The notes below the pieces were generated by a model that was given only the letters and a program-made list of their open reading frames with translations, did no database searches and had not been told where the DNA came from. The translations under genes were made by a program, and so were the position numbers. Of a DNA stretch of 64,000 nucleotides, positions 27,504 through 44,974 are shown one piece after another. Origin of the DNA: Dysgonamonadaceae bacterium (GTDB lineage Bacteria > Bacteroidota > Bacteroidia > Bacteroidales > Azobacteroidaceae); contig JAISOJ010000009.1 of assembly GCA_031275735.1 (NCBI GenBank), positions 1 through 64,000 on the forward strand. Direction: 5' to 3'. How positions within the stretch are numbered: the first letter of the stretch is position 1; every line of letters starts with the position of its first letter.

Positions 27504-29081
27504 TTAACAGCCGACTATTGTTATTCCGCCTTCTTCTATCCATTGCAGGCGCTCGCTCCAGGGCAAAGGTTCGGGACGACGGTCGAAAATCACCAGATAA
27601 GCGTTTACCGGGCGGCTGTCTTTGGGACGAAAGAAAGGAGAAAATGTTTCCTTATAGCGTAAGGTTTGGCGGATACCCTCCGTTTTTACCGCATCGAAAG
27701 TTTTCCCTTTTCTCAATAATTTGACTTCGATGATGTTCCATGCCCCCTTGTATTCGACGGCCAGATCCATCCGGCCCCTTCCGGCGGCATATTCCCGTTC
27801 GATGCGTCCCTCCCCATTGATAACCCGTTGCAAGAAAGCCATCAGAAGCAAATGAGGGAAAGCTTCGGTATAATTCATCATTTCGTCCCAGGCTTCGGAA
27901 TTGGTTTGCCAAAACGCTTGGAACTCGCGGAGCAAACCGTCCATATCCAGCGTCCCGTCGGGATTTTGCCATTGCCATTCGGGAGCAGGGATTGCCAATT
28001 GTGGGCTGTAAGTCAATTGACGGGCAATCACTTCCCTGTAAATGGGATTGGCTACAACAGGCGTTCCGCCTTCCGTGGTTACCAGTCCCAAATCCAAGCA
28101 AATACGGAAAGCCTCGCTATTGGCCAGCATGGGATTGGGTTCGCCGGTAATCAGCGATTCCATCACATAACGGACATTCGGGTCTTCCAGGCGGTAAGCC
28201 AAAGCATCCAGATGGGTTTCACGTGCCATAATCATCTGTTGGAGAGCCTCCCTAATATGCTCGATGGTAACGGTTTCCGTACTTTCCTCGGTTAATATCC
28301 GCAAGGTTGCCCGCATAAACAGGGAATTGACAATCCCGGGTTGCCCCTTCGACTGTTCATACACATAATCCAATGCTTCCTGTGTGATTAACTGTCCGGT
28401 TTCGGACGTTCGCTGCGCAAAAAGATGAGCTATGTCTTCCCGCTGAAAATTAGCTAAGACAGCCGAATCTTCTTTGATATTGAAAGGCGAACCGGGATTG
28501 GGGGCAATTCCTCCTTTAGGCTGGGTAATGTAGTCTTTCAGGTCGCGCATACCGACCAATGCAATGGATATGGGAAACTTGCCTATACCGCGCGAAGCAA
28601 AACCGCTACGTAGCTGACGCAAGAAACTGATCATCACTTCGCCCTGCAAGACGTCGACTTCATCGAAGAGGACAATTAAAGGCTTGGGAGCAACTAATTT
28701 AGCCCAATTACTTAAAATATCATTTAATGAAGAAAGGGGACTTCCAGTATTGGAAGAAGGGACGGGTAAATCTATTTTTTCCGCCGCATCACGAATGGCA
28801 TCATTTATTGCCGGCATGGCGCGTTCCGGCTCTGCAATTCCTTGACAACGTTCTACTGTGACATAACAGGCAATAGCTTCATTGCCTGCGTTAATCTCCC
28901 GCATCCAGCTTTGCAGGAAGGTTGTTTTACCGGTTTGACGCGGCGCATGAAGCACCCAGTAAAGTCTGTCACTGATATAGCGATGCAATTGAGCGCCCAC
29001 TAAACGGTCTTCCGGAGGAAGCATGTAATGTTCTTCCGGATTACAGGGGCCTGTAGTGTTGAAAAAACGAAGTCGTGCCAT
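27504..29081 (-). CDS. AAA-like ATPase with C-terminal PD-(D/E)XK nuclease-like domain
   Basis: Walker A-like APRQTGKTTF, Walker B LIVLFDEVDVL, C-terminal GRGRMDLAVEYKGAWNIIEVKLL (D...ExK). Confidence 0.78.
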   Translation of the reverse strand: MARLRFFNTTGPCNPEEHYMLPPEDRLVGAQLHRYISDRLYWVLHAPRQTGKTTFLQSWMREINAGNEAIACYVTVERCQGIAEPERAMPAINDAIRDAAEKIDLPVPSSNTGSPLSSLNDILSNWAKLVAPKPLIVLFDEVDVLQGEVMISFLRQLRSGFASRGIGKFPISIALVGMRDLKDYITQPKGGIAPNPGSPFNIKEDSAVLANFQREDIAHLFAQRTSETGQLITQEALDYVYEQSKGQPGIVNSLFMRATLRILTEESTETVTIEHIREALQQMIMARETHLDALAYRLEDPNVRYVMESLITGEPNPMLANSEAFRICLDLGLVTTEGGTPVVANPIYREVIARQLTYSPQLAIPAPEWQWQNPDGTLDMDGLLREFQAFWQTNSEAWDEMMNYTEAFPHLLLMAFLQRVINGEGRIEREYAAGRGRMDLAVEYKGAWNIIEVKLLRKGKTFDAVKTEGIRQTLRYKETFSPFFRPKDSRPVNAYLVIFDRRPEPLPWSERLQWIEEGGITIVGC

Positions 29082-29166
29082 GAAATGTTTATCTGTTTAA
29101 AATATCACAAATGTAGTTCTTTTTTTTAAGAACACATGGTTATGTAAATTACTCCAAAGAATCTGT

Positions 29167-29632
29167 TTTAGAAAATTGGACGATACCTAATAAAAATGCC
29201 AATAATGACTTCATAGTGCGAGTTTTCTATAAACAACACTCATAAAAAGCAAATTTCAGTGGTGCAGGTAAAAATCATTGAGAAAAAATTATATATTTCA
29301 ATCTTTTTTTATACATCTATTGTAAAAGCCATAATTTATTTCATTTTTACATAATTATTGATAATTTTTTTCTAATTTTGCCACAAAATTTAGGAGTTAA
29401 TAATTGTCGTATTCATTGTGGGTAAACATTTAGAAACAATTTACAAAATTTTCTTTCGATGAAGAAATTCAAGTGTTTTTTAATTTACAATCGTTTATCA
29501 CTAACAAACATTTCACCGTTATTGCACATTACTCTGAATCATTTTTTAAGATATGAAAAAAGGCGGCGCGATTTTCCGGTTTTTCACCCAAAAACGATAA
29601 CTTGGGATTAAAATTTAACAAAAAATTATACC
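29167..29632 (+). repeat. Long direct repeat copy 1: conserved non-coding leader upstream of the module-protein array
   Basis: Aligns along its whole length with 35185-35663 (e.g. ...aggagttaataattgt[c/t]gtattcatt[g/a]tgggtaaacatttagaaacaat...cttgggattaaaa[t/c]ttaacaaaaaattatacc). Confidence 0.88.
29373..29380 (+). promoter_or_regulatory. -7 box TAATTTTG within leader copy 1
   Basis: Matches TAnnTTTG and is conserved in the second copy as TAACTTTG (35393-35400). Confidence 0.5.
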
Positions 29633-29753
29633 TTATAATGAATTAAGGAGAAAAGAATTAATAAAAAATAGGCTTCGGTTATTAGTTCTTTATTAGCAAT
29701 TTGGAAAGAAGTGTAATATTAAATATTTATATTAAACAATTAAAATCACGTTT

Positions 29754-30470
29754 ATGAATGCAACAGTTTATTTTAGAAGACTGAAGTTTATTGTTTCCTT
29801 GTTAACACATAATTTTTGCTTCGGTATCGAATCCGTGCCCAAGAAGGCAGGATTATTCGCTCTGTTGGTCGCTTTACTTACATTCAACGCCAAAGCTCAA
29901 GTAACGATCGGCGACATCACCACGCCCAACAAACATGCTATCCTGGAATTGAAAACTGCCGGCGACGGCCGTGGCCTCTTATTGCCGGGAGTTAAACTGG
30001 AGGGTTTGACTGCTACAACGCCCTCTTTTACCTCGGACGATGTGCCGCAGGGCCTTCTGGTGTATAATACCGGCGCCGACGCTTCAAGTCTCCTTACCGA
30101 AGGATTGTATTATTGGAACGGCTCCCATTGGGAAGCTACCGGCAACAATTGGTTTTACATGCCGGCTACCACTTTTAATACGGATTCAAGCAAACCGGCC
30201 AGCGAAAACAGCAAGGATTTGTATGCCGTTTACGCCGCTCAATTTGCTTCTTCGGCCACTCAAGTGATTGGCAGTACAGGCGCTCCGGCTATTCATACGC
30301 TAATTCCGGCTATTCCGGCGCGTACCGATTTCTATTATTATGTCATTTCGTATGATACAACCGTCTTTGATAATATAAGTATCAATGCGAATGGAGAAAT
30401 GACCTACGACTTGCTGAAAGACGGAGACGAGTCGACTTACATAAACATTGTGTTTGTGAGAAAACGTTAA
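29754..30470 (+). CDS. Predicted secreted protein with shared N-terminal module (type 1 of 4)
   Basis: Hydrophobic signal ...KAGLFALLVALLTFNAKAQ then VTIGDITTPNKHAILELKTAGDGRGLLLPGVKLEGL...PQGLLVYNTG...GLYYWNGSHWEA. Confidence 0.72.
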   Translation: MNATVYFRRLKFIVSLLTHNFCFGIESVPKKAGLFALLVALLTFNAKAQVTIGDITTPNKHAILELKTAGDGRGLLLPGVKLEGLTATTPSFTSDDVPQGLLVYNTGADASSLLTEGLYYWNGSHWEATGNNWFYMPATTFNTDSSKPASENSKDLYAVYAAQFASSATQVIGSTGAPAIHTLIPAIPARTDFYYYVISYDTTVFDNISINANGEMTYDLLKDGDESTYINIVFVRKR

Positions 30471-30560
30471 TCGAAACAAACCCTGTTATGCGAAACAAAT
30501 AATTTAATCCAGTGTATGTTATCAATTTTTCATCACAGGGTCGAAAAAAATATAAAAAAA

Positions 30561-33500
30561 ATGATACAATCAAATAAAAAATACAAAGGAGGGAAGCTAT
30601 GGTTTATCTGTTTGCTCTTTTTATCGGCAGCCATGCACGCGCAAACGCAAACGCCGGGAGGAACGAGCTTGAACGTCAAACTTTGGTTGGCCGCCGATAA
30701 ACTGAACGGGACAAGTCCTTTACAGAACAATCTTACAAATGTCAATCCCTGGAAGGATTTGTCGGGCAAGGGCATGGACTTCATACAAAATGGCAACAAT
30801 GAGCTTCCCCAATTGACCTACAGCGGTATGAATTTTCACCCATCGGTAGAATTTCTTAGAGGAAGCAATGCCACTGCTGATCAAACTAAAAAGTTGGTTT
30901 CCAATCAATATTTTACCACATCAGCGGATAGCGCCTATTATACGTTTTGGGTGTCCACTTTCAGCAGTGGCGGTGTTGCAGGCACCTACGCAAGTGTCTT
31001 TACTTTTGGGGGAAATGCTGATCTTAACAGAAACGAAAACGGTTGGAGAATAACTGGTCCAGCTATTTATCATACCACCCGTAACTCGGCTAACCGCCAC
31101 CACAACGATTTAAGCAAAAATTATGGTATAGGCTCCATTTTTCGTCCCAACAGCAGCAACGCTAACTCCGAATATCAATACCACAACGGAGATTCGGCTG
31201 CATTTACCGGAACAACAATTAGTAATATGACTACGTTCAACGCTATAATAGGGAATAGTAATACAACCAATAGTGATTATTTTTATGGACAAGTGCAGGA
31301 AATCATTGTTTTGTCCGTTCCCAAGACTTCCGGATTAGACGCCGGCGAATTGAAAAAGGTACATTCCTACCTGGCTATAAAATACGGGCAAACGATGGAG
31401 AATTTCCCCGATTTTGTCAATTCATCGGGAACCAATGTCTGGACGGGTACAAACAATACGGGCTATACCTCGCATATCTTCGGGATTGGGCGCGATGATG
31501 CTTCCGGTCTTTACCAGAAACAGTCGGCCAATTATGAATTTCAGGATCTGACGGTATTTGTCGGCGATAACATTACCGCAATCAACAGTCAGAATACCGG
31601 AAATCTGGACAATGGAACCTGTCTGATGCTCGGTTCGAACGGTTCTTCTACCGGAAGAACACCTTATTCTTATGGCGCCGGAACAGTATTTGCCAACGGC
31701 ACAACGTTGAATAATCCAATTACCGAGCGTTTTAACCTGGCTTACAAGGCACAACTGACAGGTACAAATTCAATGGAGGTAAACATGCGCATGCATCGTA
31801 CGCGGCCGCAATACATTTTGGTTTCCGATAATCCGGCTTTTCCCGCAGCTTCCACCCGAATTTATTCTGTTGACAAAGAAAACGATATTGCCCGTAATGT
31901 AGTGATCAATCCGGGCGATTACATCGGATTCGCTTGCCATCCAACGAGCGGGCCGGGTGGAGTTACGGACGGGTTAAAAATGTGGCTGAGAGCCGACTAC
32001 GACGCCACGTTGAATATAGATGGAAACGGAGACGTTTCGGAATGGCGCGACGTCAACCGCGACGATTTTAAATACGAATATTTAAATGCCGGCACGGGCA
32101 ATACAAAGCCTCGTTATGAATTGAATCATCCTAAAATGAATTTCCATCCGTCGTTGCATTTTCCAAGCGTAGGAGCATTCTTAAGTTCGACGACCGGACT
32201 TATGAGTGTCGCAGCCCCGGATGCACTCTCATTTATTTCTCTGGTGAATGTAACAGAATACGGAGCAGTGGTAGATGGGGTAACTGCAACTCATTTTATG
32301 GGCTTTGGGAATACGTATCCGGGTACGGGTACGGGCTTGATGTCTGCCCGAAGGCCTTCTTTCGGTATAGGAGTAGAAAATGATGCGGGAACCGGGCGTT
32401 TTATACATTATCAAACTAAATCCGAATCCGTTAATGGGGTTAAGAGACTGTTTAGCAGAGGAGCAACCACACTTACTTTGCATCAAATTTCAAAATCCGG
32501 GACAAATGACTTTAATATAGAATTTGAAATAGGCGCCAATAATGAAACTTTTACCAATCAAACGGCTCCCGACAATTATAGTGCTATGATATTAAACGAA
32601 TCTTCCATGTTGGGAACCGGTTCTGCCAGCAATAGGAATCTGCTTGGTTATATGAGCGAAATGATAGCTTACGAACGTATTCTTACCGCTGAAGAAAAGA
32701 ATAAAATTTATTCTTACCTGGGGATGAAATACGGTGTTACCCTGGATCCGGAACCGGGTAATTTAGCGCTCAATTACGACTATGTCCTGTCTGATAACAC
32801 GTCGGTTTGGCAGGGAACGTCATCGCCGCTTCACAGGGTTTACCACCATAATGTGGCGATGGTGGTCAGGGACGACGCTGCCGACTTGATGAACAAGCAG
32901 GCACGCTCGACCGATACCGGCGACTTTATTGTGATGGGCGTAAACGGTACGGTACTGAGTCTTGATGGCAACGTTGATATGGCGGGCTTTACGAGCGATC
33001 TGTCGGCTATTGCCTGGGGAAACAACGGAGAGCCTTACGACGCGACCGCGGCAACCAAGGTAGACATTAGCGGCCTTTCGCATGTATGCGGCAACATGGA
33101 CTATCGGGCAAAACGGATCTGGATGATAGACAAAACGGCAAGCGGCGACCAAAAAATCATGATTGGCGTCGGAGGCGAGTATTTCCACGAAAGTGGCGCC
33201 AATTATCAGGTATTCCTTCTCTTTGGCGATTCGGAAGACCTGGAGAATAACGAATGGAGTCAGGTTGTTCCTACCAACTATTACAACGACCTCCATCAGG
33301 GGCTTTATACGCTAACCGACGATCTTACTTATTTTACCATTGGAGTAAAAGAATTGCCGGGAAGTTGTGAAACCTGTCAGTTTTCGAACTACAAGAACTT
33401 GTATTTTACTTCGAGTAACTGGCCGAACGGCACAACATCCAAGACTTTTGATTTAGGCGAGGGATTTTCGGCTCAGGTAAATGTAGCGCTTGCTACCGGC

Positions 33501-34970
33501 AGCAATTTCTATAGCGGATACCCCCAAGCGTCGTCCAATACTTTGCGCGAATACCGGCGACTCAATTTGGACAGGGAAATGACGACAACCATTTCCCATT
33601 ATGCAACCGGCACCTCTACTTCCTATCCGGTAGCCGCTTCTTTCCAGATTTACGAAATAGACAGGGAAGGAAATGCCCTGGACGAAGTGGATATTATTGG
33701 CTATTGCGGCAACAGCGAGGTATATCCGATCTTAAGTTACGTAGCGGCGGCAAATGCCAGTTCATACACGATTGTTAATACGCACCATGTTTCGGCCAAA
33801 CATCAGCCGACGCCTGCTTATGCGGATAATGCGGGAAAACTGAATGTGTTGTTCGACTATCCGGTCGAGAAGATCATAATCAAACACAACGCTATCGGAA
33901 CAGGTACAGCAAGCGGTTCCCAACGGATTGGCATCGGGCCAATACAATTCTTTTGTACGCCTCCTATTCCGGAGCCAAACGAAGACGGCCTGGTTCTTAC
34001 TAAACTGGCAACACCGTCGAGCAACGTATCGTTGTGCGATAATGTGTCCTATACATTCCAGCTATACAATACGAATTGTGTGGCCATGGATGTGAACTTT
34101 TCCGATGTTTTGCCGACAGGTATGAAATGGCATGCGGAATCGCTTCAAATTTCGGACACACTTGCCGCCAATTATCAGGTCAATGCCTATGCCGACCAAA
34201 AGGTATTGAGTATCACCGGACTAACTATCCATCCGGCATCTTCCACCCGAATTTCCGCATCAGCGTTTTTTGATGAAAATGCGACCGCAAGTACGACTTA
34301 TTCAAACCAAAGTTCGATCGAATACAAGAATTTTAGCGGGTTCGACAAGTCGCTGTTGAGCTGCGACCGGTATATTACGGGTGGTTGCGCTCCTACATCC
34401 GTCGTCACCAGTTCGGTAACAACCCGAACACTTCCTGTCGAGTTGATGCATGAAACAAACAAATCGGTTTATGGAGCCAAAGACAACATTACCATTCGTG
34501 TCCGGATCAATAATCCCAATAATTCAATCGCCGGTGTTGTATTGAATATCTCCTACAATGAGGCATTCACTTACAACACTTCTTCACCCTTGCGAAGTTC
34601 ACCCAATATAAACGGAATCGTGACTCTCAATTCGGAGCCGGGTATTTTAAATGTCACCGGCATAACCTTGCCGGATAATACAGAGGGTTGGTTTGAGTTT
34701 GATCTGAAAGCTCCGGAAAAAGACAATTTGGAAAAAGTGTTTAACGAGAATGGAGATATGGTGGATGTGGACGGAAATGTAGTGACCGATCCCAAACTAC
34801 AGGCCATTTTCCCCTTGCTGGTCGGGTATAGCTTTACCGCTACCACGAGCGATAAATGCATGGAAATGACTTTCTTGAATGCCAGTGGCGAAATACAAAT
34901 ACCGTATAATATTGCCTCTAAAGCATATATTATTAGTAACAAGCACGTTACCGGAATTCCGAAACGGTAG
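30561..34970 (+). CDS. Giant secreted protein with two LamG/DUF8202-like domains and a C-terminal DUF11/adhesin-like region
   Basis: ORF call begins 30516; in-frame ATG 30561 gives signal MIQSNKKYKGGKLWFICLLFLSAAMHAQ. VKLWLAADKLNG...SYLAIKYGQTM recurs as LKMWLRADYDAT...SYLGMKYGVTL. Confidence 0.72.
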   Translation: MIQSNKKYKGGKLWFICLLFLSAAMHAQTQTPGGTSLNVKLWLAADKLNGTSPLQNNLTNVNPWKDLSGKGMDFIQNGNNELPQLTYSGMNFHPSVEFLRGSNATADQTKKLVSNQYFTTSADSAYYTFWVSTFSSGGVAGTYASVFTFGGNADLNRNENGWRITGPAIYHTTRNSANRHHNDLSKNYGIGSIFRPNSSNANSEYQYHNGDSAAFTGTTISNMTTFNAIIGNSNTTNSDYFYGQVQEIIVLSVPKTSGLDAGELKKVHSYLAIKYGQTMENFPDFVNSSGTNVWTGTNNTGYTSHIFGIGRDDASGLYQKQSANYEFQDLTVFVGDNITAINSQNTGNLDNGTCLMLGSNGSSTGRTPYSYGAGTVFANGTTLNNPITERFNLAYKAQLTGTNSMEVNMRMHRTRPQYILVSDNPAFPAASTRIYSVDKENDIARNVVINPGDYIGFACHPTSGPGGVTDGLKMWLRADYDATLNIDGNGDVSEWRDVNRDDFKYEYLNAGTGNTKPRYELNHPKMNFHPSLHFPSVGAFLSSTTGLMSVAAPDALSFISLVNVTEYGAVVDGVTATHFMGFGNTYPGTGTGLMSARRPSFGIGVENDAGTGRFIHYQTKSESVNGVKRLFSRGATTLTLHQISKSGTNDFNIEFEIGANNETFTNQTAPDNYSAMILNESSMLGTGSASNRNLLGYMSEMIAYERILTAEEKNKIYSYLGMKYGVTLDPEPGNLALNYDYVLSDNTSVWQGTSSPLHRVYHHNVAMVVRDDAADLMNKQARSTDTGDFIVMGVNGTVLSLDGNVDMAGFTSDLSAIAWGNNGEPYDATAATKVDISGLSHVCGNMDYRAKRIWMIDKTASGDQKIMIGVGGEYFHESGANYQVFLLFGDSEDLENNEWSQVVPTNYYNDLHQGLYTLTDDLTYFTIGVKELPGSCETCQFSNYKNLYFTSSNWPNGTTSKTFDLGEGFSAQVNVALATGSNFYSGYPQASSNTLREYRRLNLDREMTTTISHYATGTSTSYPVAASFQIYEIDREGNALDEVDIIGYCGNSEVYPILSYVAAANASSYTIVNTHHVSAKHQPTPAYADNAGKLNVLFDYPVEKIIIKHNAIGTGTASGSQRIGIGPIQFFCTPPIPEPNEDGLVLTKLATPSSNVSLCDNVSYTFQLYNTNCVAMDVNFSDVLPTGMKWHAESLQISDTLAANYQVNAYADQKVLSITGLTIHPASSTRISASAFFDENATASTTYSNQSSIEYKNFSGFDKSLLSCDRYITGGCAPTSVVTSSVTTRTLPVELMHETNKSVYGAKDNITIRVRINNPNNSIAGVVLNISYNEAFTYNTSSPLRSSPNINGIVTLNSEPGILNVTGITLPDNTEGWFEFDLKAPEKDNLEKVFNENGDMVDVDGNVVTDPKLQAIFPLLVGYSFTATTSDKCMEMTFLNASGEIQIPYNIASKAYIISNKHVTGIPKR

Positions 34971-34988
34971 AATTTCGAAATAACAGGA

Positions 34989-35033
34989 ACAGAAGTGTCC
35001 AAAAAGCTGAAAAGACTTTTTGAACACTTCTGT
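34989..35033 (+). terminator. Strong hairpin after the giant LamG-like gene
   Basis: acagaagtgtccaaaaag / ctttttgaacacttctgt, 17/18 paired, 9 nt loop; no clear U-tract follows. Confidence 0.5.
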
Positions 35034-35184
35034 TATATAGCGATAACGGAGACGACTGAAGAGACTGTCTAAAAAGCACTTTTGACACATTGTAAAGAAC
35101 GCCAATGACAAGTAAATGATTTGTATTCAGCGATATAGTAAAAAAAATGCTCAAAAACTAAAATTCAGATGATGATTTTTCATA

Positions 35185-35663
35185 TTTAGAAAATTAGACG
35201 ATACATAATAAAAATGCCAATAATGAATTCATAACGCGAGTTTTTTATAGACAACGCTCATAAAAAGTAAATTTCAGTGATGCAAGTAGAAATTATTGAG
35301 AAAAAATTATATATTTCAATCTTTTTTTTATATATCTATGGTAAAAGCCCTAATTTATTTCATTTTTATATAATTATGAATAATTTTTTTTCTAACTTTG
35401 TCGCAAAATTTAGGAGTTAATAATTGTTGTATTCATTATGGGTAAACATTTAGAAACAATATGCAAAATACAAGATTTTCTTTTGATGAAAAAATTTAAG
35501 TGTTTTTTATATTTATAATTTTTTATTATTACAAACATTTTACCATTAATGTACATTATTCTGAATCATTTTTTAAGATAATGAAAAAAGGAGATGCTGA
35601 TTTTTCCGATTTTCACCCCAAAGAAAGATAGCTTGGGATTAAAACTTAACAAAAAATTATACC
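35185..35663 (+). repeat. Long direct repeat copy 2: conserved non-coding leader
   Basis: Aligns with 29167-29632; ends 16 bp before the ATG at 35680. Confidence 0.88.
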
Positions 35664-35679
35664 ATAATAAGTGAGAAGT

Positions 35680-36354
35680 ATGAAAAAAAGAAATGTTTTT
35701 GGGTATGTGGGGATGTTTTTCTTGATTACCTATTCGATTTCGATGCAAGCGCAAGTAGTGATAGGTTACAATAAAACATCGGAAAAATTTTCCGTATTGG
35801 AACTGCTTTCTACTACAGGCGGCTTGCGCTATCCACAACTAACTCAAAGTCAAAAGGATGCTTTGAGTCTGACTTCAAATCCTTTAGCCGGTGGTTTAAT
35901 CGTTTTCAACAAGGATAATGCCGGAAATCTGGAATATTACAATGGCAACAGTTGGACGGTAGTCTATACTCCGTTTGTTATCCGTTCGATTCGTCAATTG
36001 GGCAGAGACCAGGGCGTAAGTATTACCGGTACACAATCTATTTCTGTTCCGGTAACTGCAAGCGAGGTAGCATCGCAAACTTACCACATCCAATTACCGG
36101 GAACTATTCTTGCCGACATAAGCAAGTTAAAAGTCGGGAAATACCTCGATTTCGATAATGTTGTTCAAAGTGTTACGCTCAACAATACGTCGATAATAAG
36201 TACAGACAATATTTTTACGGTTACTTTTCGTCAGCGGGCGGTTGATTTAATAAAGCAATCTTCCGAACCGATTCGCTTTACCTTATACGCTACTTACGAG
36301 GATAATGGCATCGCCAAAGAAGTCGATTTTGAAGTAACGTTGCAAAGGGAATGA
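35680..36354 (+). CDS. Predicted secreted protein with shared N-terminal module (type 2 of 4)
   Basis: ORF call begins at a GTG at 35671; ATG 35680 gives MKKRNVFGYVGMFFLITYSISMQAQVVIGYNKTSEKFSVLELLSTTGGLRYPQLTQSQKDAL...GGLIVFNKDNAGNLEYYNGNSW. Confidence 0.72.
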   Translation: MKKRNVFGYVGMFFLITYSISMQAQVVIGYNKTSEKFSVLELLSTTGGLRYPQLTQSQKDALSLTSNPLAGGLIVFNKDNAGNLEYYNGNSWTVVYTPFVIRSIRQLGRDQGVSITGTQSISVPVTASEVASQTYHIQLPGTILADISKLKVGKYLDFDNVVQSVTLNNTSIISTDNIFTVTFRQRAVDLIKQSSEPIRFTLYATYEDNGIAKEVDFEVTLQRE

Positions 36355-36396
36355 TAAAAAATGTTAACTAAAATTTAATCATAAAATTCCATTCAG

Positions 36397-37896
36397 ATGA
36401 AAAAATGGTTTTCTTATACTTTAATCTTTTTCTTGGCCTATGCTTTCGAATCGAAAGCGCAAATAGTTATCGGCGATCAGAAAGAGCCTGAGAATTTTTC
36501 TGCTCTTGAACTTATATCTAAAAACGGAACAGGAGGCATCATTCACCCTCAAATGACTGAAGCGCAGAGAGATGCGATTACAGCATCCTTGTCTTCCTCC
36601 CAAAAAACAGAAGCGCGGGGATTAGTAATTTACAACACCACCGAAGGTTGCCTTAACCTCTACCGAAATGAAAGCGAAGGTTGGGTAAGCCTCTGTTCGG
36701 GAGTAATTATTCCCCTCTTGGCGGAAGACGTCGCTGAAATACGTCCGATGCAGGGAACTATACCCGGCGACGGTAAAAAAGGAAAAGCCAAATACGACGT
36801 CGCACAAAGCAATTCATCCCTCGACGGCAGTTGCGGCGTAATCGGCTCGCCCAGTCGTCCCGGCGATTTCGGCAATTTCAACGATAATACCGATTTACGA
36901 AAATATTATGAAATCGTATTCCCCGCAGGGACTTATTCCTACCTGGTTGTCGGCGAACGGGAATATGCCACTCAGTTTTTAACCGTAACCGGCGGACAGG
37001 AAGGCAGCTTTAGCGGAGGAGCATACCCCATAATCGTGGATTTCGACCCGAAAATAAAAGAACTGGCTCGCGGCCTCGAAGAAAACAACGCCCTTTACAC
37101 TACGATCTTTGCTGTATATCAAAAAGACGGACAATGGTACAAAGCCGAATACAAACTTTCGGTGATGGATTGTCTGGGATGCGGCGTTCGAATACAAACC
37201 GGCGAAAAGGAATGGATGCGGGTAGCCTGTTACAATTTGGGCATTACTAACACTCTCGCCGATGCATTGTCTTACAGCGAAGATCTCATAGGCGACCGCT
37301 ACCAATGGGGACGGCAAACCGACGGACACGAAAAAACCGGCGCCTATATTTATCGTCCAAAAGTCGCTTTAGGCGAAATTGTTTACCCTGCTGCGCCGCT
37401 GGATAGCTTAGATGCCAACGGACAGCCGATCGGAGAGAGAAGAGGAGCTTTCATACCGGGAACCGGCGCCTTTTCCGGCATCGGCGGCGATTGGAGCGTA
37501 TTGCATCACCCTGCTTTATGGGGCGACGGAACGCAAAACGCTCATCCTGCAAAAACCGTTAACGACCCCTGTCCGAAAGGCTTCCGAATCCCATCGAAAA
37601 CGGAAATGGAAAAAATCTTGAACGCATTAAACATAAATACCAGCCTCTGGGGAGGCTTGGCTAAAGACGACGGTATCTTGTTCTTACCTTATGTTTACAA
37701 CAAAGAAATTAGCGGCACTTGGAATAGCGGCAGTCAGTGTTCGTATTGGACGGCAACCCCCGGTGCAACGCCTTCCGTCAGCAAAATTGATTTCTTGACA
37801 AAAGCGCAGGCACTTATTATTCAATCCGACGGAACGCCAAGCATGGGCGCCGTAGAAAAAGCCAAAGGCGCAACTGTCAGATGTATTGCCGAATAA
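36397..37896 (+). CDS. Predicted secreted protein: shared N-terminal module plus FISUMP-like C-terminal domain
   Basis: QIVIGDQKEPENFSALELISKNGTGGIIHPQMTEAQRDAI...RGLVIYNT; C-term YQWGRQTDGHE...NDPCPKGFRIPSKTEMEKIL...YWTATPG...VRCIAE. Confidence 0.75.
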   Translation: MKKWFSYTLIFFLAYAFESKAQIVIGDQKEPENFSALELISKNGTGGIIHPQMTEAQRDAITASLSSSQKTEARGLVIYNTTEGCLNLYRNESEGWVSLCSGVIIPLLAEDVAEIRPMQGTIPGDGKKGKAKYDVAQSNSSLDGSCGVIGSPSRPGDFGNFNDNTDLRKYYEIVFPAGTYSYLVVGEREYATQFLTVTGGQEGSFSGGAYPIIVDFDPKIKELARGLEENNALYTTIFAVYQKDGQWYKAEYKLSVMDCLGCGVRIQTGEKEWMRVACYNLGITNTLADALSYSEDLIGDRYQWGRQTDGHEKTGAYIYRPKVALGEIVYPAAPLDSLDANGQPIGERRGAFIPGTGAFSGIGGDWSVLHHPALWGDGTQNAHPAKTVNDPCPKGFRIPSKTEMEKILNALNINTSLWGGLAKDDGILFLPYVYNKEISGTWNSGSQCSYWTATPGATPSVSKIDFLTKAQALIIQSDGTPSMGAVEKAKGATVRCIAE

Positions 37897-37924
37897 TTAA
37901 TTAATCTTACTAAATTTTTGATTT

Positions 37925-39196
37925 ATGAAACGAAAATATAATGTCACGTGGTTACTTGTCGCTCTTTTTTTTCTGTTTGCCTTTCCGGCGCGAAGTCAGG
38001 TGAAAATAGGAAATACAACGGATCCGTGGCCATTTTCCTTGTTGGAAATAGAAAGTACCACAGGCGGCGTACGTTTGCCGCAATTGACGGGAGCGCAGGC
38101 CGCCGACTTGAAAGATTACCTGAATAACCAGGCTTCTCAAACCGAAAAAGAGCGGGCGCAAGGTTTATTGATATACAATACGGATACCAAGAAAATTGAA
38201 ATGTGGAACAATAATAACCGGAACTGGAAGCGATTGGAAGAAACCGTTGATTGCGTCAATGCCGAAAGCCTTACAATTTCAGCGCCGCTTACCGTTTTTA
38301 CGGAATACGCCGGCGACCTCGTCTTAACGGCGAACATCACCGGCGCTTCCCCCAGTGCAGACCCGCTCTATACCTGGTACCGGAACGATGAACCCATTGC
38401 CGTGGGCCGCGTCTTGACCGTCAAAAAAGAAGATTTGAGCGCCCAATGGAGCGGAATCTATACCGTCGACGTCTTAACTTGCGGATTCAGCGCCGTTGGA
38501 AACCTCTCTTCTTCGCCGGTAAACATCACGGTAAACAAAAAGGAACCGATAAAATATCAAAATACGTCATTATTTTATTCTTATTCTGATTTTATTAATC
38601 TCATTGAAGTGTCCGGATATCATGTATCAGCCTCGCAAGCGCCTGATTGCCTCTTCCTTCGCACTCCCAAGAGAAGTATTTCTCAAATTACCCTGAGATC
38701 GGGACAGGGATATGACCTGGTCACCAGCCACAGTACCGTCTGTCACGGTTACCGAAGTCCTTCTAATTCTTTTTCCGTGATTTTTTTTGATGCGGAAGGA
38801 TATCATTTGACCTCTTCCCCCATCCAAATGCCGTCTGAAAATCAGGATATTTCGTTTGCAACATCAGAAAAAAAGAACATGACGCTTAATGGGGATGCCT
38901 GGACGCTCTATCAACCCAAATCCGCAGAACCAACGCCGGGGCGCTACGTAGATTTTTGCCGCAGCCTGTTTTTCGACCACCCGCGCGCTTCGCTCCTATC
39001 CAAAGCGTTTTTAGAAAAATATGCCGCTTATTTAAATTCAACCATTATACCCGCCGGCGATTATTGGGTGCTGGACAAAACGTTTACTCCCCTGAAAGGT
39101 ACGGTTTCCTATCCTTCGGGAAAATTTACTTTAGTTACTTCGGAAGCTTCTTCAGGTAACTTTAACGTAAGATGTATTCAACCGGCAACTAATTAA
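37925..39196 (+). CDS. Predicted secreted protein: shared N-terminal module plus Ig-like domain
   Basis: QVKIGNTTDPWPFSLLEIESTTGGVRLPQLTGAQAADL...QGLLIYNTDTKKIEMWNNNNRNWKRL; then YTWYRNDEPIAVGRVLTVKKEDLSAQWSGIYTVDV. Confidence 0.7.
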   Translation: MKRKYNVTWLLVALFFLFAFPARSQVKIGNTTDPWPFSLLEIESTTGGVRLPQLTGAQAADLKDYLNNQASQTEKERAQGLLIYNTDTKKIEMWNNNNRNWKRLEETVDCVNAESLTISAPLTVFTEYAGDLVLTANITGASPSADPLYTWYRNDEPIAVGRVLTVKKEDLSAQWSGIYTVDVLTCGFSAVGNLSSSPVNITVNKKEPIKYQNTSLFYSYSDFINLIEVSGYHVSASQAPDCLFLRTPKRSISQITLRSGQGYDLVTSHSTVCHGYRSPSNSFSVIFFDAEGYHLTSSPIQMPSENQDISFATSEKKNMTLNGDAWTLYQPKSAEPTPGRYVDFCRSLFFDHPRASLLSKAFLEKYAAYLNSTIIPAGDYWVLDKTFTPLKGTVSYPSGKFTLVTSEASSGNFNVRCIQPATN

Positions 39197-39321
39197 TCTC
39201 TTAAAAACGAAAAAAAATGAAAAAAATAAATATGAAACATTCCTGTATTTCACATACCCAAGAGTATGAAAATGCGTATTCGTTTACTTGTCAACTCGTT
39301 TACTCGTTAACTCATTTTCGT

Positions 39322-42300
39322 ATGAAATTCAAACTATTTTGGATGGGCTTGTGCCTGACATTTGCGCAAGGAATATGCGGACAAATCGCTCCGGGGCAAA
39401 CGGATACAACCGATGTAGCTACCTGTTTCGATTTTATGGGAACCGTAAATTTTTCTTCTACTTACCGATGGATTACCAGTTATACCGGCCCTACCGCGCC
39501 GGACGACTGGACAGGTGGGCTATTAAATCCAAATACAAATAGAATGGTCGACTTCTCAATCCCTTTAGTAGCTGATTTAGATGGAGATGGATATCCGGAA
39601 ATAATTGGGTTGGGAGTATCCGGCACTGGTGGCTCGACCGGATATTATAATAATATTCAAATATACAACGGACAAACCGGTGAAATGATTACAAAATTAT
39701 ATTTACCGGGAACTGGTAATCATGATACATATTATTATTATCATTCCTCCTATCATGGTTCTCCGTGTCCTATGGCAATTGTGGATTCGGACAGGGACGG
39801 CATCAAAGAATTAATTTTTGCCTTTCCTAACAATAATTACTTAGCTTCAAGCTCTTATTGTAATAAGTTAGTTTCATTGGAATTGATTCCGCAAAAAAGC
39901 AACGACATAACGACAGATTATACGCTAAATGAAAAATGGCAGTCAACAGCTAATTATAATGCGGATTTGAGTGCCAACTACCATAAACCGCTACCCACTG
40001 TGGTTGATTTGGACGGCGATGGAAAAGCGGAAGTGGTAGTGTATAACCGGATATACAATGCGGCAACAGGAGCGCTATTGTCCAGTTTGGAAGGAAGTTC
40101 TTCTTTTATAGGGGGAGACGAAGGCGCTTATAATAATGATGATTACCTCGGCTTCAATTATGTGTATGACATGGACCTCGACGGGATTTATGATATCGTT
40201 GCCGGAGGCAAGATATATAAGATGCCCCAAAATATGAATGGTACTTTTTCTCCTACGACAATTACAATGACAGGCGTTCCTGACGGACGTACAGGAGTTG
40301 CCGATATTAACGGAGACGGTAGTCCGGATGTAGTAGTGGTTAAGAGGCTAGACAATGATGACATAAGAATAGTCGTTTGGAATCCTAATTTTTCCAATGG
40401 AGGGAATTCCTCGTCCCCTACAATTTTAGCCGATAGAACTTTTATGCATGAAGGCTACACGGGAGCCGCCTTCGCTAGCAATTCGTATGTTTTTATTGGC
40501 GATATCGACGGCCGAGTACAACAAACGACAGACAATCAAAGCTATCGCTTGCCGGAGATTGCTATATTGTCGGGACCTTACTCCTATGTGAATAGCAAAC
40601 ACTTAACTGTGCATCCGAATGTAGCGGGAATCTCTACGGCTGACGGCGGTTTTCCTACTACAGGAACCACTGCGGGAGAGGGCGCTATCGTCGCTGTTAC
40701 TTGGGATGCAAACCCCGGTGTATCGAAGGAAGAGCGCCTAAAACTATCGTTTATATTGGAACATGATGATCCCTCGCGTAATACCGGATTCACCATGTTT
40801 GATTTTGATAACGACGCTCAACAGGAAATTTGTTACCGGGATGAAAAGTCTTTACGCATCATAAAACCGATCAAGCCATTAATTAAAAATACTGCGACGG
40901 CAGCGTCAAACGGTATTTTATTCAAACAAGCAGTCATCTCTTATACGGGATTTGAATATCCGGTTATTGCGGATATAGACAATGACGCTTCTGCTGAAAT
41001 TATTGTTACAGGACGCAATGCGAACTCTGGCGCTTATTATTATGCATATATTTACGCCGTAGGTCCGAAGAACGATAAATTTGCTCCCGCATTGGGGGTT
41101 TGGAATCAATATATGTACGACCCGTTTAAAATCAAGGCGGATAGTTTAACTACGCCGATTGGTCCTGCACCCAATCGCCTGAGCCCGGAGTTCACGTATA
41201 ACCGGGTGGTTCGAAATGCAGAGGGTACGATCATAAAAACGGCAGAGGGATACCAACCTTATAATGCAACCATTATGCAAGACATGCGCTTCAAGAATAC
41301 GCCGGGAACTCCACATGGGAGCATAGAGCCGATTATTTTCCTGACGGAAGCCTATATTGTTACTACCGGAGCAGATAAACCAACCATAACGGGGACAAAT
41401 ACTACGAACGGGAAAATAACCCTCTATGTGGGTAATAAATCGACTGCGGAAACGGACGTAAATGCCAATACGCCGATTTCCATCTATCAAAACTCCGTAT
41501 CGAAAGCCAATTTTGTAAAAAAAGTAAGTCTTTCCGGATGTGGTTTTACGGGAGGCTCCATCCAAGCCGGCCAAACGGCAAAGATTGAAATTACGGGAGG
41601 AATAGACCCGACAGCCATCTATATCCTGCGTTTGGGAGACGATAGCGATTTGTCGGGTATAAACGAAATTTGGCGTTTCGGCCTCAATCCTCCGGCAACC
41701 AACAATACAAGCAACCAAACGGGTCCCTCTTCGCTAGCTTTCCGCGATTGCGACTGGAGCGATCAGGAAATAAAAGTAGCTCAACTTGTGGCCAACGACG
41801 ATATATATACCATTCAGGAACACAGTTTTGTGGATATTGATTTATTGGCCAATGATATTATTCCCGCCGATGCATCGATCAATATTAGAGAAGGCTTGAA
41901 CGGAGAGCTTTTGTCCGGACCTGTCGCCGGTGATCTCACCTGGTCGGGAAATGTACTTCGCTATACGCACAACGCAAAGACCGATCTGACGGATGGAATC
42001 GAATCTTTTCAATACCAAATTTCTTATATGTTTCCCGGCGCCGGTGCGGTAACAACGAGGACGGCAACGGTGTACATCTATATTTTGCAAAGCGAGGCCA
42101 ATGCTTTTGTCAGTTGTTACGGCGATAATTACCTGATTCAATTGAAAGAATTGCCCGGCGGCGTTCAATTCTATTGGTCCAGCGGGTTTTCCACTAAGGA
42201 AGAAACAACTCCCCATAGCTCCTTGCAACTATCGAATATAGTAGAGGATACTATTTTCTATATCCGTCCCGTTCCCACCGCAGCGCCTTACAATGGCCTT

Positions 42301-43860
42301 TCATTCCCGCGGGGCAAGTTGCATGTTTCAGTCGTACCGGAGGAAATCGATGGAAAACGAACTATTTTGAAATGGACAGGCGCCGCCAGTACCAATTGGT
42401 TTGATCCGAACAACTGGACGGATAACGACGGTAATGCAGTAACTTATTCGCCCTCTAACTGCACAGACGTAATCTTGTCGGAAGGGAAAAGCCGCTATCC
42501 GACATTAAACAGACCCGGAATAGCTAATAATATTTATATAAAAAACCGGGCAATGCTAGGGAATACTTTCCAACTTACATACGAAAAAGCTGCTTTCGAA
42601 CTGAAATTGAAGGCAAAGGAACGCAACCGCCTGTTGATGTACTCGGCGCCTTTCGGCAAAACTTATTCCGGCGACTTTATGTTGCGCGGCAAAGATGGTT
42701 ATCCCATCAAAAAAGCGGTTTACATGAGTTTCTTCCAGGCAACGAATCCGGATAATTCTTCCGAAACAGCAACGGCATACCACTTTACGCAGTCGTTCAG
42801 TAAAGAAGACGAGGAATTAACTTTAGGCAAAGGGTTTATCCTGTCTGTGGACGGTACGCAGGATACGGGCGATACCTCGTTCCAATTCCCGTCGCCGGTC
42901 GATCAATACGAATATTATTATGACGACGAATATATTGATAATTTGACAACACCGCCACAGGCGCCGTTGGCGCCGTTCTCCGGAGTGTTGGATAGAGGAA
43001 ACCCGGAGAAGAATAGCCGGTTCATTGCCGAAATGAGCAGCGGCGGCACATACAGCGCCTCCGGCTATTTTGATTTGACCATACCCAACGACCTTCCCGG
43101 CTCAAAATTGTTGATGCTGGTAAACCCGTTCAACTCCTTTTTAAGTGTGGATTCCGTTTTGGTGGGAAATGCAACAGTCTTGGAAGCCGGCCGCTACTAT
43201 ATTTGGGACGGTTCGGAGATAAGCGGTTTTATATCTTTTCAAAAGGCGAAAAATCAATGGGTCGTCGGCAATCCGGATGCCCTGCCGCAAACGCCTTCGC
43301 CACTCCTGATACCTCCTTACCAGGCTATTTTTGTATTGAAAAAGAACCCCGGTTCAATGGCAACCGTCCGTCTTTCCGAAAACTGGACAACCACAGACGG
43401 TGTCGGCTATGAATTGCGTTCGGGACACCAAACGGATGCGGGCGGCGAAGAAAACGCATGGTATCTGAATGTTTCGTCGGGCGAATTGGCCGGTCGTACA
43501 GCCTTGTTCGCTTCGGAAGAAACGACACATACGCCGGCTTTGTTTTTCGACGGCGACCAAGCGCAATCATTGGATATTTATGTGATTGACAAACAAGGGA
43601 AAGCTGTTTCGATAACGGGTTTCTCCGCCGAAGAACAAGAGGTGCAACTGGGACTTCGGCTGAAACAGTCCGGCGAAATCGAAATGGATTTGCAAGGCTT
43701 GGATACGGACGGCTATCAAGTGTACCTGAAAGATGAAGACCAACTGATTGATTTGTCAGACGGCAAGAAATACAAAACAACTATTGTTCGTCCGGTAGAT
43801 GCCAATAAAACTTACTTTGAAGTCAACGACCGTTTCAGTTTATTAATTAAAAAGAATTGA
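39322..43860 (+). CDS. Giant secreted FG-GAP/VCBS-repeat-like protein
   Basis: ORF call begins 39217, but ATG 39322 starts a good signal peptide MKFKLFWMGLCLTFAQGICG. Repeated D-x-D-x-D-G motifs: VADLDGDGYPEIIG, VDLDGDGKAEVVV, MDLDGIYDIVAG, ADINGDGSPDVVV. Confidence 0.75.
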   Translation: MKFKLFWMGLCLTFAQGICGQIAPGQTDTTDVATCFDFMGTVNFSSTYRWITSYTGPTAPDDWTGGLLNPNTNRMVDFSIPLVADLDGDGYPEIIGLGVSGTGGSTGYYNNIQIYNGQTGEMITKLYLPGTGNHDTYYYYHSSYHGSPCPMAIVDSDRDGIKELIFAFPNNNYLASSSYCNKLVSLELIPQKSNDITTDYTLNEKWQSTANYNADLSANYHKPLPTVVDLDGDGKAEVVVYNRIYNAATGALLSSLEGSSSFIGGDEGAYNNDDYLGFNYVYDMDLDGIYDIVAGGKIYKMPQNMNGTFSPTTITMTGVPDGRTGVADINGDGSPDVVVVKRLDNDDIRIVVWNPNFSNGGNSSSPTILADRTFMHEGYTGAAFASNSYVFIGDIDGRVQQTTDNQSYRLPEIAILSGPYSYVNSKHLTVHPNVAGISTADGGFPTTGTTAGEGAIVAVTWDANPGVSKEERLKLSFILEHDDPSRNTGFTMFDFDNDAQQEICYRDEKSLRIIKPIKPLIKNTATAASNGILFKQAVISYTGFEYPVIADIDNDASAEIIVTGRNANSGAYYYAYIYAVGPKNDKFAPALGVWNQYMYDPFKIKADSLTTPIGPAPNRLSPEFTYNRVVRNAEGTIIKTAEGYQPYNATIMQDMRFKNTPGTPHGSIEPIIFLTEAYIVTTGADKPTITGTNTTNGKITLYVGNKSTAETDVNANTPISIYQNSVSKANFVKKVSLSGCGFTGGSIQAGQTAKIEITGGIDPTAIYILRLGDDSDLSGINEIWRFGLNPPATNNTSNQTGPSSLAFRDCDWSDQEIKVAQLVANDDIYTIQEHSFVDIDLLANDIIPADASINIREGLNGELLSGPVAGDLTWSGNVLRYTHNAKTDLTDGIESFQYQISYMFPGAGAVTTRTATVYIYILQSEANAFVSCYGDNYLIQLKELPGGVQFYWSSGFSTKEETTPHSSLQLSNIVEDTIFYIRPVPTAAPYNGLSFPRGKLHVSVVPEEIDGKRTILKWTGAASTNWFDPNNWTDNDGNAVTYSPSNCTDVILSEGKSRYPTLNRPGIANNIYIKNRAMLGNTFQLTYEKAAFELKLKAKERNRLLMYSAPFGKTYSGDFMLRGKDGYPIKKAVYMSFFQATNPDNSSETATAYHFTQSFSKEDEELTLGKGFILSVDGTQDTGDTSFQFPSPVDQYEYYYDDEYIDNLTTPPQAPLAPFSGVLDRGNPEKNSRFIAEMSSGGTYSASGYFDLTIPNDLPGSKLLMLVNPFNSFLSVDSVLVGNATVLEAGRYYIWDGSEISGFISFQKAKNQWVVGNPDALPQTPSPLLIPPYQAIFVLKKNPGSMATVRLSENWTTTDGVGYELRSGHQTDAGGEENAWYLNVSSGELAGRTALFASEETTHTPALFFDGDQAQSLDIYVIDKQGKAVSITGFSAEEQEVQLGLRLKQSGEIEMDLQGLDTDGYQVYLKDEDQLIDLSDGKKYKTTIVRPVDANKTYFEVNDRFSLLIKKN

Positions 43861-44038
43861 ACATTCGCTATTTTCCGGTTGTTCTATTTCAATAATAGAT
43901 TGATTATCAAAGAAGGAATAGAAAAAGGAACAGAAAGAAAGGATAAGGAAGAAGAAATAAACAAGTTGCAGAGTTTGTTTTCATACCGTGCTTCTTCCTC
44001 CCTTTCTCTCTGTTTCTTTATTCCATTAATATTTACGT

Positions 44039-44974
44039 ATGAAAGAAAAAAGCAAGCCTTACCGGGATTTCGGCGATTATTTGTCAACGGTTTTTCCTTT
44101 CAAGGTACAGAAAATTTCCATCAATGCCGGTTTTACCTGCCCAAACCGCGACGGGACAAAAGGATGGGGAGGCTGCACTTATTGTAATAATCAGACGTTC
44201 AGTCCGCAATATGCTGCGAATAATAAACCGGTTGCCCAACAGTTGGAAGAAGGAATGCGTTTTTTTTCGCACAAATATCCCCAAATGAAATACCTCGCTT
44301 ATTTCCAGGCTTATACTAATACTTACGACTCTGTAGAAAATCTTCTCCCAAAATACGAAGAAGCTTTGGACTATCCGAACGTTGTGGGCCTGATTATTGG
44401 AACCCGCCCCGACTGTGTGCCGGAAGAATTGCTGGATGAACTGGAAAAAATTTCCCGGAAATATTTTCTTTTGGTAGAATATGGCATCGAATCGACTTGT
44501 AACGAAACTTTGCAATTTATCAACCGGGGACATACGTATGAAGAGGCCGTAGAAGCTATCTTGCGAACCACTTCCCGGGGAATAAATAGCGGCGCTCATC
44601 TGATTTTGGGGCTTCCGGGCGAAACTCAAGCAATGATTCTTTCCCATGCCGATAAAATTTCCCAATTACCGCTTACGACGATCAAACTACATCAGTTACA
44701 ATTGATTCGTCACACGAAAATGGCCCGTCAGTTGGAAGAACATCCGGAATTGTTTCATCGATACGACGTGGATGAATACGTTGATTTGTGCATCGATTTC
44801 CTCGAACGTTTGCATCCCGATTTAGCTGTGGAACGTTTTGTTTCCCAATCCCCGGAAGAACTCTTGGCTGTTCCCGGCTGGGGATTGAAAAACTACGAAT
44901 TTACTGCTCAATTGAATAAACGAATCATAGAACGAGGCGCTTATCAAGGACGATATTTTTCCCTTTCCATCTAA
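44039..44974 (+). CDS. TIGR01212/YhcC family radical SAM protein
   Basis: INAGFTCPNRDGTKGWGGCTYCNNQTFSPQY...LIIGTRPDCVPEELLDEL...GAHLILGLPGE. Confidence 0.9.
   Translation: MKEKSKPYRDFGDYLSTVFPFKVQKISINAGFTCPNRDGTKGWGGCTYCNNQTFSPQYAANNKPVAQQLEEGMRFFSHKYPQMKYLAYFQAYTNTYDSVENLLPKYEEALDYPNVVGLIIGTRPDCVPEELLDELEKISRKYFLLVEYGIESTCNETLQFINRGHTYEEAVEAILRTTSRGINSGAHLILGLPGETQAMILSHADKISQLPLTTIKLHQLQLIRHTKMARQLEEHPELFHRYDVDEYVDLCIDFLERLHPDLAVERFVSQSPEELLAVPGWGLKNYEFTAQLNKRIIERGAYQGRYFSLSI

What the first reader, a model, noticed from the sequence alone, without database searches (positions are those of the whole stretch)
29754..39196. Four non-identical secreted proteins share one N-terminal module: a candidate surface-fibre family
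ORFs 29754, 35680, 36397 and 37925 each start with a signal peptide and then QV.IG...LEL...GG...PQLT..Q..AL...GL..YNT....YYNG..W. The C-termini are all different (unique, unique, FISUMP-like, Ig-like). The module resembles the widespread Bacteroidetes extracellular/tail-fibre-like head segment (LD...GF..PRMT..QRDAI..P..GL.IYNT). Its serial reuse on unrelated effector domains, co-oriented with two giant proteins, suggests subunits of one assembled surface structure or swap-ready display cassettes.
Basis: partly seen in the sequence, partly recalled or inferred. Interest (0 to 1): 0.7.

Follow-up and report, generated by a model that had tools for sequence, protein, structure and literature searches.

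The report
Partner proteins of giant surface adhesins
In a bacterium from the termite-gut symbiont group, small secreted proteins sharing one start module sit in operons with two giant surface proteins; in relatives those giants instead come with genes for hair-like fimbriae, so the small proteins look like a swap-in for fimbrial parts.

Summary
The core observation is right. Four signal-peptide proteins share a ~75-residue module directly after the predicted cleavage site (pairwise z 10-23). Details need correcting. They form two sets: 29754+30516 (giant 1), and 35680-36397-37925-giant 2 (39322). 29754 belongs to another module clade. 35680 and 36397 share a second domain. The module is phylum-wide (67 of 297 genomes), up to ~94 copies per genome in this genus, and often in lone genes.

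The new result is the neighbourhood. The operon b-c-d-giant is conserved with orthologous C-termini in Ca. Symbiothrix; Dysgonomonas has a two-gene version. In Tannerellaceae the same giant 2 is the last gene of type V fimbrial operons. Giant 1 shows the same switch inside the genus: a small module protein upstream in six genomes, Mfa/DUF5119/DUF3575 fimbrial genes in two. Giants in fimbrial context end in a T9SS-type tail; those in module context do not.

Best reading: module proteins are dedicated partner subunits of giant surface adhesins, working like the tip complex of type V fimbriae without being fimbrillins. Assembly, fold and export are inferred; AlphaFold was too poor to decide.

Side finding: giant 2's start codon carries a 90-bp in-frame element with ~40 further copies in the genome, mostly at start codons of secreted-protein genes.

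The parts
29754..30470 (+). Protein a (ORF 238 aa; likely GTG start at 29835): signal peptide, module, conserved C-terminal domain ending YINIVFVRK
29898..30140 (+). Module of protein a (second module clade)
30516..34970 (+). Giant 1 (1484 aa), no Pfam domain, no T9SS tail; relatives in 8 other genomes of the genus
34988..35034 (.). 20-bp inverted repeat between the two gene sets (possible terminator, weak T run)
35393..35400 (+). TAACTTTG, a match to the Bacteroidota -7 motif in the long intergenic region; the motif is at background frequency in the window
35680..36354 (+). Protein b (224 aa): signal peptide, module, domain 2
35752..35964 (+). Module of protein b
36397..37896 (+). Protein c (499 aa): signal peptide, module, domain 2 ending DCLGCG, FISUMP-like C-terminus
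36460..36693 (+). Module of protein c
37567..37890 (+). FISUMP-like region of protein c (sub-threshold)
37925..39196 (+). Protein d (423 aa): signal peptide, module, Ig-like stretch, C-terminus ending NVRCIQP
37997..38236 (+). Module of protein d
39232..39321 (+). 90-bp (30-codon) dispersed element directly 5' of the ATGAAA start codon of giant 2, in frame
39322..43860 (+). Giant 2 (1512 aa from 39322; ORF opens at 39217): FG-GAP propeller, Ig-like (Big_9), no recognised T9SS tail

Best explanation
The module marks a class of signal-peptidase-I secreted partner subunits for giant beta-rich surface proteins. b, c and d (35680-39196) with the FG-GAP giant (39322-43860), and separately a (29754) with giant 1 (30516-34970), are two cell-surface adhesin units. 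In each, the small module proteins bind one another and/or the giant outside the outer membrane and present its propeller and Ig domains, probably to gut or protist surfaces. They work like the tip complex of type V fimbriae (Mfa3-5 / FimC-E), and in this lineage they stand where fimbrillin-type lipoproteins stand in relatives. Shown: shared module, conserved operons with orthologous C-termini, the same giants in fimbrial operons elsewhere, and absence of the T9SS-type tail in the module context. Inferred: physical assembly, surface location, route across the outer membrane, ligand.
For: Module similarity z 10-23. The same b-c-d-giant operon lies in G032, which matches record JAITXK010000115, Ca. 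Symbiothrix Zx50, with 40/44/38/41% identity. Dysgonomonas ZJ279 has module-FISUMP-FISUMP followed by the giant. Giant-2 orthologues in Tannerellaceae/Parabacteroides directly follow a FimA/BACON/FISUMP-type lipoprotein (L093, L095, L098, L101, L103, L109, L163), with Mfa2 or fimbrillin genes further upstream in L098, L109 and L163. The C-terminus of that lipoprotein matches that of protein c (hhalign 92.5%, E 5e-7). An independent second case: giant-1 relatives follow a short module protein in G004, G010, G013, G033, G036 and the window, but follow DUF3575, DUF5119 and Mfa_like_1 genes in G034 and G063. Fimbrial-context giants end in T9SS type-A-like tails; module-context giants do not. Module copies group by gene position across genomes. 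In a one-contig genome (G467) short module proteins are again co-operonic with larger secreted proteins. G000 has no Mfa_like_1 hit. Mfa5, a large tip protein using T9SS, is the documented precedent (PMC7835359).
Against: Many module proteins in the genus are single genes without a giant beside them, so partnership is not universal. Fimbrial Mfa2 genes occur in about half the genus, including genomes with module proteins, so 'replacement' is not genome-wide. G000 is only 76% complete. No structure, interaction or localisation was shown: models had mean pLDDT 63 and 47, with the module's first strand below 50. Protein d shows no profile similarity to the Tannerellaceae lipoprotein. T9SS tail scores are weak in single proteins (E 2e-4 to 0.4), and the two contexts are not many independent events (perhaps 2-3 transitions). 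L094, L100 and L102 carry giant 2 without an adjacent fimbrial or module gene.
Confidence: 0.5

Rival explanations
1. The module is only a generic N-terminal folding or sorting domain of secreted Bacteroidota proteins. b, c, d and the giant are separate surface proteins that share an operon for co-expression and do not form a complex.
For: The module occurs in 67 of 297 Bacteroidota genomes, up to about 94 copies per genome in the genus, often in lone genes with many different C-termini. It also occurs as three tandem copies at a C-terminus.
Against: Module proteins recur directly upstream of two unrelated giant families in several genomes, with stable gene order and orthologous C-termini, in the position held by fimbrial genes in relatives.
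Confidence: 0.3
2. A genuine fibre: the module is a trimeric head or shaft domain, or a strand-exchange subunit, so that module proteins polymerise into a surface filament.
For: Very conserved mature N-terminus (QVxIG), conserved C-terminal strand in protein a relatives, tandem module arrays, serial module genes elsewhere.
Against: No structural match to any fibre or fimbrillin, no relatives found in viral contigs, no oligomer evidence, low-confidence models.
Confidence: 0.12
3. Swap-ready display cassettes: the module is a recombination handle that lets C-terminal domains be exchanged.
For: The same module is joined to FISUMP, Ig/PKD arrays and small beta domains across the genus.
Against: In this operon the C-termini are orthologous in another genome and module trees follow gene identity. 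Module DNA was not tested for recent exchange.
Confidence: 0.06

Closest known systems
Type V fimbriae (FimA-E, Mfa1-5) of Porphyromonas and other Bacteroidales
   Same: Giant 2 and giant 1 relatives are the last gene of such operons in other genomes; FISUMP-type subunit upstream; large multi-domain tip protein comparable to T9SS-dependent Mfa5 (PMC7835359).
   Different: The window has no recognised fimbrillin fold, no lipobox subunits, no Mfa2/FimB anchor in the locus, and giants without a recognised T9SS tail.
FISUMP proteins (TIGR02145 / PF09603)
   Same: Protein c ends in a FISUMP-like region; the Dysgonomonas relative carries two strong FISUMP domains behind the same module.
   Different: Protein c is below the curated cut-off; a, b and d are not FISUMP; the N-terminal module matches no Pfam or NCBIfam model.
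Mfa5-type large fimbrial tip proteins
   Same: Large beta-rich secreted protein at the end of the operon.
   Different: Mfa5 has a von Willebrand domain and a T9SS domain; giant 2 has an FG-GAP propeller and Ig-like domains and no recognised T9SS domain.
Phage tail fibre / S74 proteins
   Same: Superficial motif resemblance (IG..P, GL.IYNT).
   Different: No S74 domain, no relatives found in viral contigs, no significant fold match.

Membership tests
Type V fimbriae (FimA/Mfa) | Fimbrillin-fold subunits (PF06321, PF15495, PF13149) | tested here: not met
   No hit for a, b, c or d; no PF13149 hit in the whole MAG
Type V fimbriae (FimA/Mfa) | Lipidated precursors (lipobox cysteine) | tested here: not met
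   Sequences: all four have signal peptides ending AQ or SQ before QVxIG, no lipobox
Type V fimbriae (FimA/Mfa) | Mfa2/FimB anchor gene in the operon | tested here: not met
   None of the six proteins matches PF08842; own genome has one weak hit on another contig
Type V fimbriae (FimA/Mfa) | Shares the terminal giant gene with fimbrial operons of relatives | tested here: met
   giant 2; giant 1
Type V fimbriae (FimA/Mfa) | Large tip protein with T9SS C-terminal domain | tested here: not met
   No T9SS tail recognised on either window giant; present in fimbrial-context relatives
Type V fimbriae (FimA/Mfa) | Protease-triggered strand-exchange polymerisation | not testable with these tools
   Needs purified proteins
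FISUMP domain proteins | TIGR02145/PF09603 above curated cut-off | tested here: inconclusive
   c: 22.3 bits against 41.65 and 18.8 against 33.9; Dysgonomonas relative 140.6 bits; a, b and d none
T9SS type A cargo | C-terminal Por_Secre_tail | tested here: not met
   No hit in a-d or the two giants, although the genome encodes about 45 such domains above the cut-off
Phage tail fibre / S74 | S74 chaperone domain and viral relatives | tested here: not met
Phage tail fibre / S74 | Trimeric fibre fold | tested here: inconclusive
   Monomer models of low confidence only
FG-GAP (integrin-like) propeller proteins | FG-GAP repeats above cut-off | tested here: met
   Giant 2: PF13517 54.5 bits against 26.9

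The most novel reading that the evidence does not exclude
Module proteins are a new class of surface-assembly subunit that replaces both the fimbrillin subunits and the T9SS C-terminal signal of giant adhesins: giants without the T9SS tail reach or stay on the surface by binding co-operonic module proteins, possibly in a filament formed by exchange of the conserved terminal strands.
Probability: 0.12. Interest if true: 0.82.

Novelty: new variant of a known kind. Interest (0 to 1): 0.5.

Why it matters
If true, a very common unnamed N-terminal module of secreted Bacteroidota proteins gets a testable role: partner subunit of giant adhesins, interchangeable with type V fimbrial subunits. It would help explain how giants lacking a T9SS tail are displayed, and point to candidate attachment proteins of the termite-gut bacteria that live on protists.

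Tried and rejected
Fold search of the protein b model against PDB and viral structures gave no significant match; the models are too poor for fold assignment. A profile search of PDB sequences hit only protein A helices through a 21-residue stretch, judged spurious. Viral-contig scans found no relatives; the broad profile A7 had no stretch conserved enough to scan with. Rfam found nothing in 29000-44200. Similarity of protein d to the Tannerellaceae lipoprotein was rejected. One operon for all four proteins was rejected (709-bp gap, different module clade). Cassette swapping was rejected for this operon. Two family searches failed on input limits. Literature searches found no paper combining FISUMP with Bacteroidetes and an N-terminal domain; of the nine papers returned for type V pili with FG-GAP, none named both.
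Full report
WHAT IS THERE. The window belongs to a 2.43-Mb MAG of 114 contigs, 76% complete. Genus-mate G032 has a contig (C43) matching record JAITXK010000115.1 in length and ORF sizes, titled Candidatus Symbiothrix sp. Zx50_bin5, so the genus belongs to the Symbiothrix/Azobacteroides group. That this is a termite-gut bacterium is inferred from those names. Six co-oriented genes matter: a (29754-30470), giant 1 (30516-34970), b (35680-36354), c (36397-37896), d (37925-39196) and giant 2 (ORF from 39217, likely start 39322, to 43860). Gaps are 45 bp, 709 bp, 42 bp, 28 bp and 20 bp (or 125 bp to 39322). The 709-bp gap holds a 20-bp inverted repeat and a TAACTTTG motif at 35393; that motif is at background frequency in the window, so it is only a candidate.

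THE MODULE IS REAL. The four N-termini align over about 75 residues straight after the predicted signal-peptide cleavage. Alignment scores exceed shuffled controls by z = 9.8-22.8. A profile finds the four at E < 1e-30 and three weaker copies on other contigs (translations). It matches no Pfam or NCBIfam family. Across the phylum it occurs in 67 of 297 genomes and 45 of 141 genera. In this genus copy number runs from none (for instance the reduced 1.0-1.2-Mb genomes G003 and G023) to 83-94 (G012, G002). It can occur as three tandem copies at a C-terminus. It is an autonomous, repeatable domain, not something peculiar to this locus.

CORRECTIONS. b and c share a second domain (hhalign P 99%, E 6e-18). 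Protein a has its own conserved C-terminal domain, with full-length relatives in G612 and, in nine copies, in G467. In a module tree of 48 rows and only 80 columns, d groups with Symbiothrix d (96/83) and c with c (93/89), while a sits across a 100/98 split. So b, c and d are old, stable paralogues and a belongs to a different subset.

THE NEIGHBOURHOOD. G032 has b-c-d-giant 2 in the same order with 40, 44, 38 and 41% identity across the proteins. Dysgonomonas sp. ZJ279 (L091) has a module protein with two FISUMP domains (PF09603 140.6 bits) directly before giant 2. In Tannerellaceae and Parabacteroides, giant 2 directly follows a 750-810-residue lipoprotein with FimA, BACON and FISUMP similarity, in varying combination (L093, L095, L098, L103, L109, L163, aligned; in L101 the same gene is cut by the contig end). 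Further upstream, where the contig allows, come the Mfa2 anchor (1.9e-41 in L098, 1.7e-32 in L109) and fimbrillins (L098, L163). L094, L100 and L102 lack such neighbours. The lipoprotein's C-terminus matches that of c (hhalign 92.5%, E 5e-7) but not d.

A SECOND, INDEPENDENT CASE. Relatives of giant 1 directly follow a short module-type protein in G010, G033, G036, G013 and G004 as in the window. The profile detects the module in the first three; in G013 and G004 (truncated) the call rests on the alignment. In G034 and G063 they follow DUF3575, DUF5119 and Mfa_like_1 fimbrial genes (1e-14 to 1e-31). So two unrelated giant families alternate between fimbrial and module neighbours.

THE TAIL. 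Giants in fimbrial context end in a T9SS type-A-like tail (TIGR04183 E 2e-4 to 0.03; own-genome-derived profile E 3e-4 to 0.4; tails printed). Those in module context end otherwise. The genome does have T9SS cargo domains (about 45 above cut-off). Scores are weak individually and the number of independent transitions is small, so this is a lead rather than proof.

HOW IT MOST LIKELY WORKS. Type V fimbriae carry accessory tip proteins, the largest of which (Mfa5) uses T9SS (PMC7835359). The simplest account is that module proteins are partner subunits for giant adhesins and stand in for fimbrial subunits in this lineage. Physical assembly, localisation and export are not shown. AlphaFold models of b and c had mean pLDDT 63 and 47. 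Within the module the helix and the three following strands are consistent in both models, but the first strand is not resolved. Fold searches found nothing significant.

ORDINARY SIDE. Many module genes in the genus stand alone, and Mfa2-type anchors are found in 21 of 41 genomes of the genus, including many with module proteins, so a generic-domain explanation remains a serious rival.

SIDE FINDING. The sequence 39232-39321, directly before the ATGAAA start of giant 2, is a 90-bp dispersed element. The search lists 48 matches in the own genome; I examined 41 copies, counting the window copy and one from G015. In 29 the start codon and gene behind it could be assigned, and 28 of these keep the reading frame (90, 87, 81 or 102 bp). 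In 27 copies of exactly 90 bp, substitutions are as often synonymous as expected (51 against 50.2) while stops are absent (0 against 12.7 expected). That is what an element tolerated only while it can be read through would show. Downstream proteins mostly start with a signal peptide or lipobox (by eye). Closest precedent by behaviour: in-frame Rickettsia palindromic elements (PMC10969869), but those are described in unrelated genes rather than at start codons.

Noticed in passing
window 39232-39321; copies on many contigs of G000 and on G015:C114: A 90-bp, 30-codon element (encoding MKHSCLTNTQEHENEYSFTRQLVNSLTHFR or similar) lies directly before ATGAAA start codons of genes for secreted proteins and lipoproteins. 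41 copies examined; 28 of 29 assignable copies are in frame and free of stops, yet amino-acid changes look neutral. Possibly a start-codon-targeting in-frame mobile element; deserves its own study.
   Followed up: partly
G018, G020, G022, G024, G063, G017: The right half of that element (TCGTTTACTCGTCAACTCGTTTACTCGTTAACTCA) is a separate dispersed repeat in related genomes, often in inverted pairs about 60 bp apart.
   Followed up: no
L184, L186, L193, L195, L196, L197: An ORF of similar size and ending (about 410-450 aa) lies beside module proteins (mostly about 1100 aa, FISUMP-type); in L196 and L197 it was shown to carry a thioredoxin-like domain. The FISUMP proteins carry a DCxCCG-type cysteine motif, so a disulphide partner is possible.
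   Followed up: partly
L180:1181-4624 (G064) and L181 (G019): A 1126-1148-aa protein ends in three tandem copies of the module after SdrD_B and YDG-type domains, with nothing behind the last copy.
   Followed up: partly
L312-L317 (G467, one-contig genome): Short module-type proteins flank about 490-510-aa secreted proteins on both sides, or head tandem units with 167-aa and 964-aa proteins repeated three times in a row in L313.
   Followed up: partly
window 27504-29081, - strand: A 525-aa ORF between the mannosidase-like gene and protein a looks like an AAA-ATPase-like protein with a nuclease-like C-terminus (by eye from the translation).
   Followed up: no
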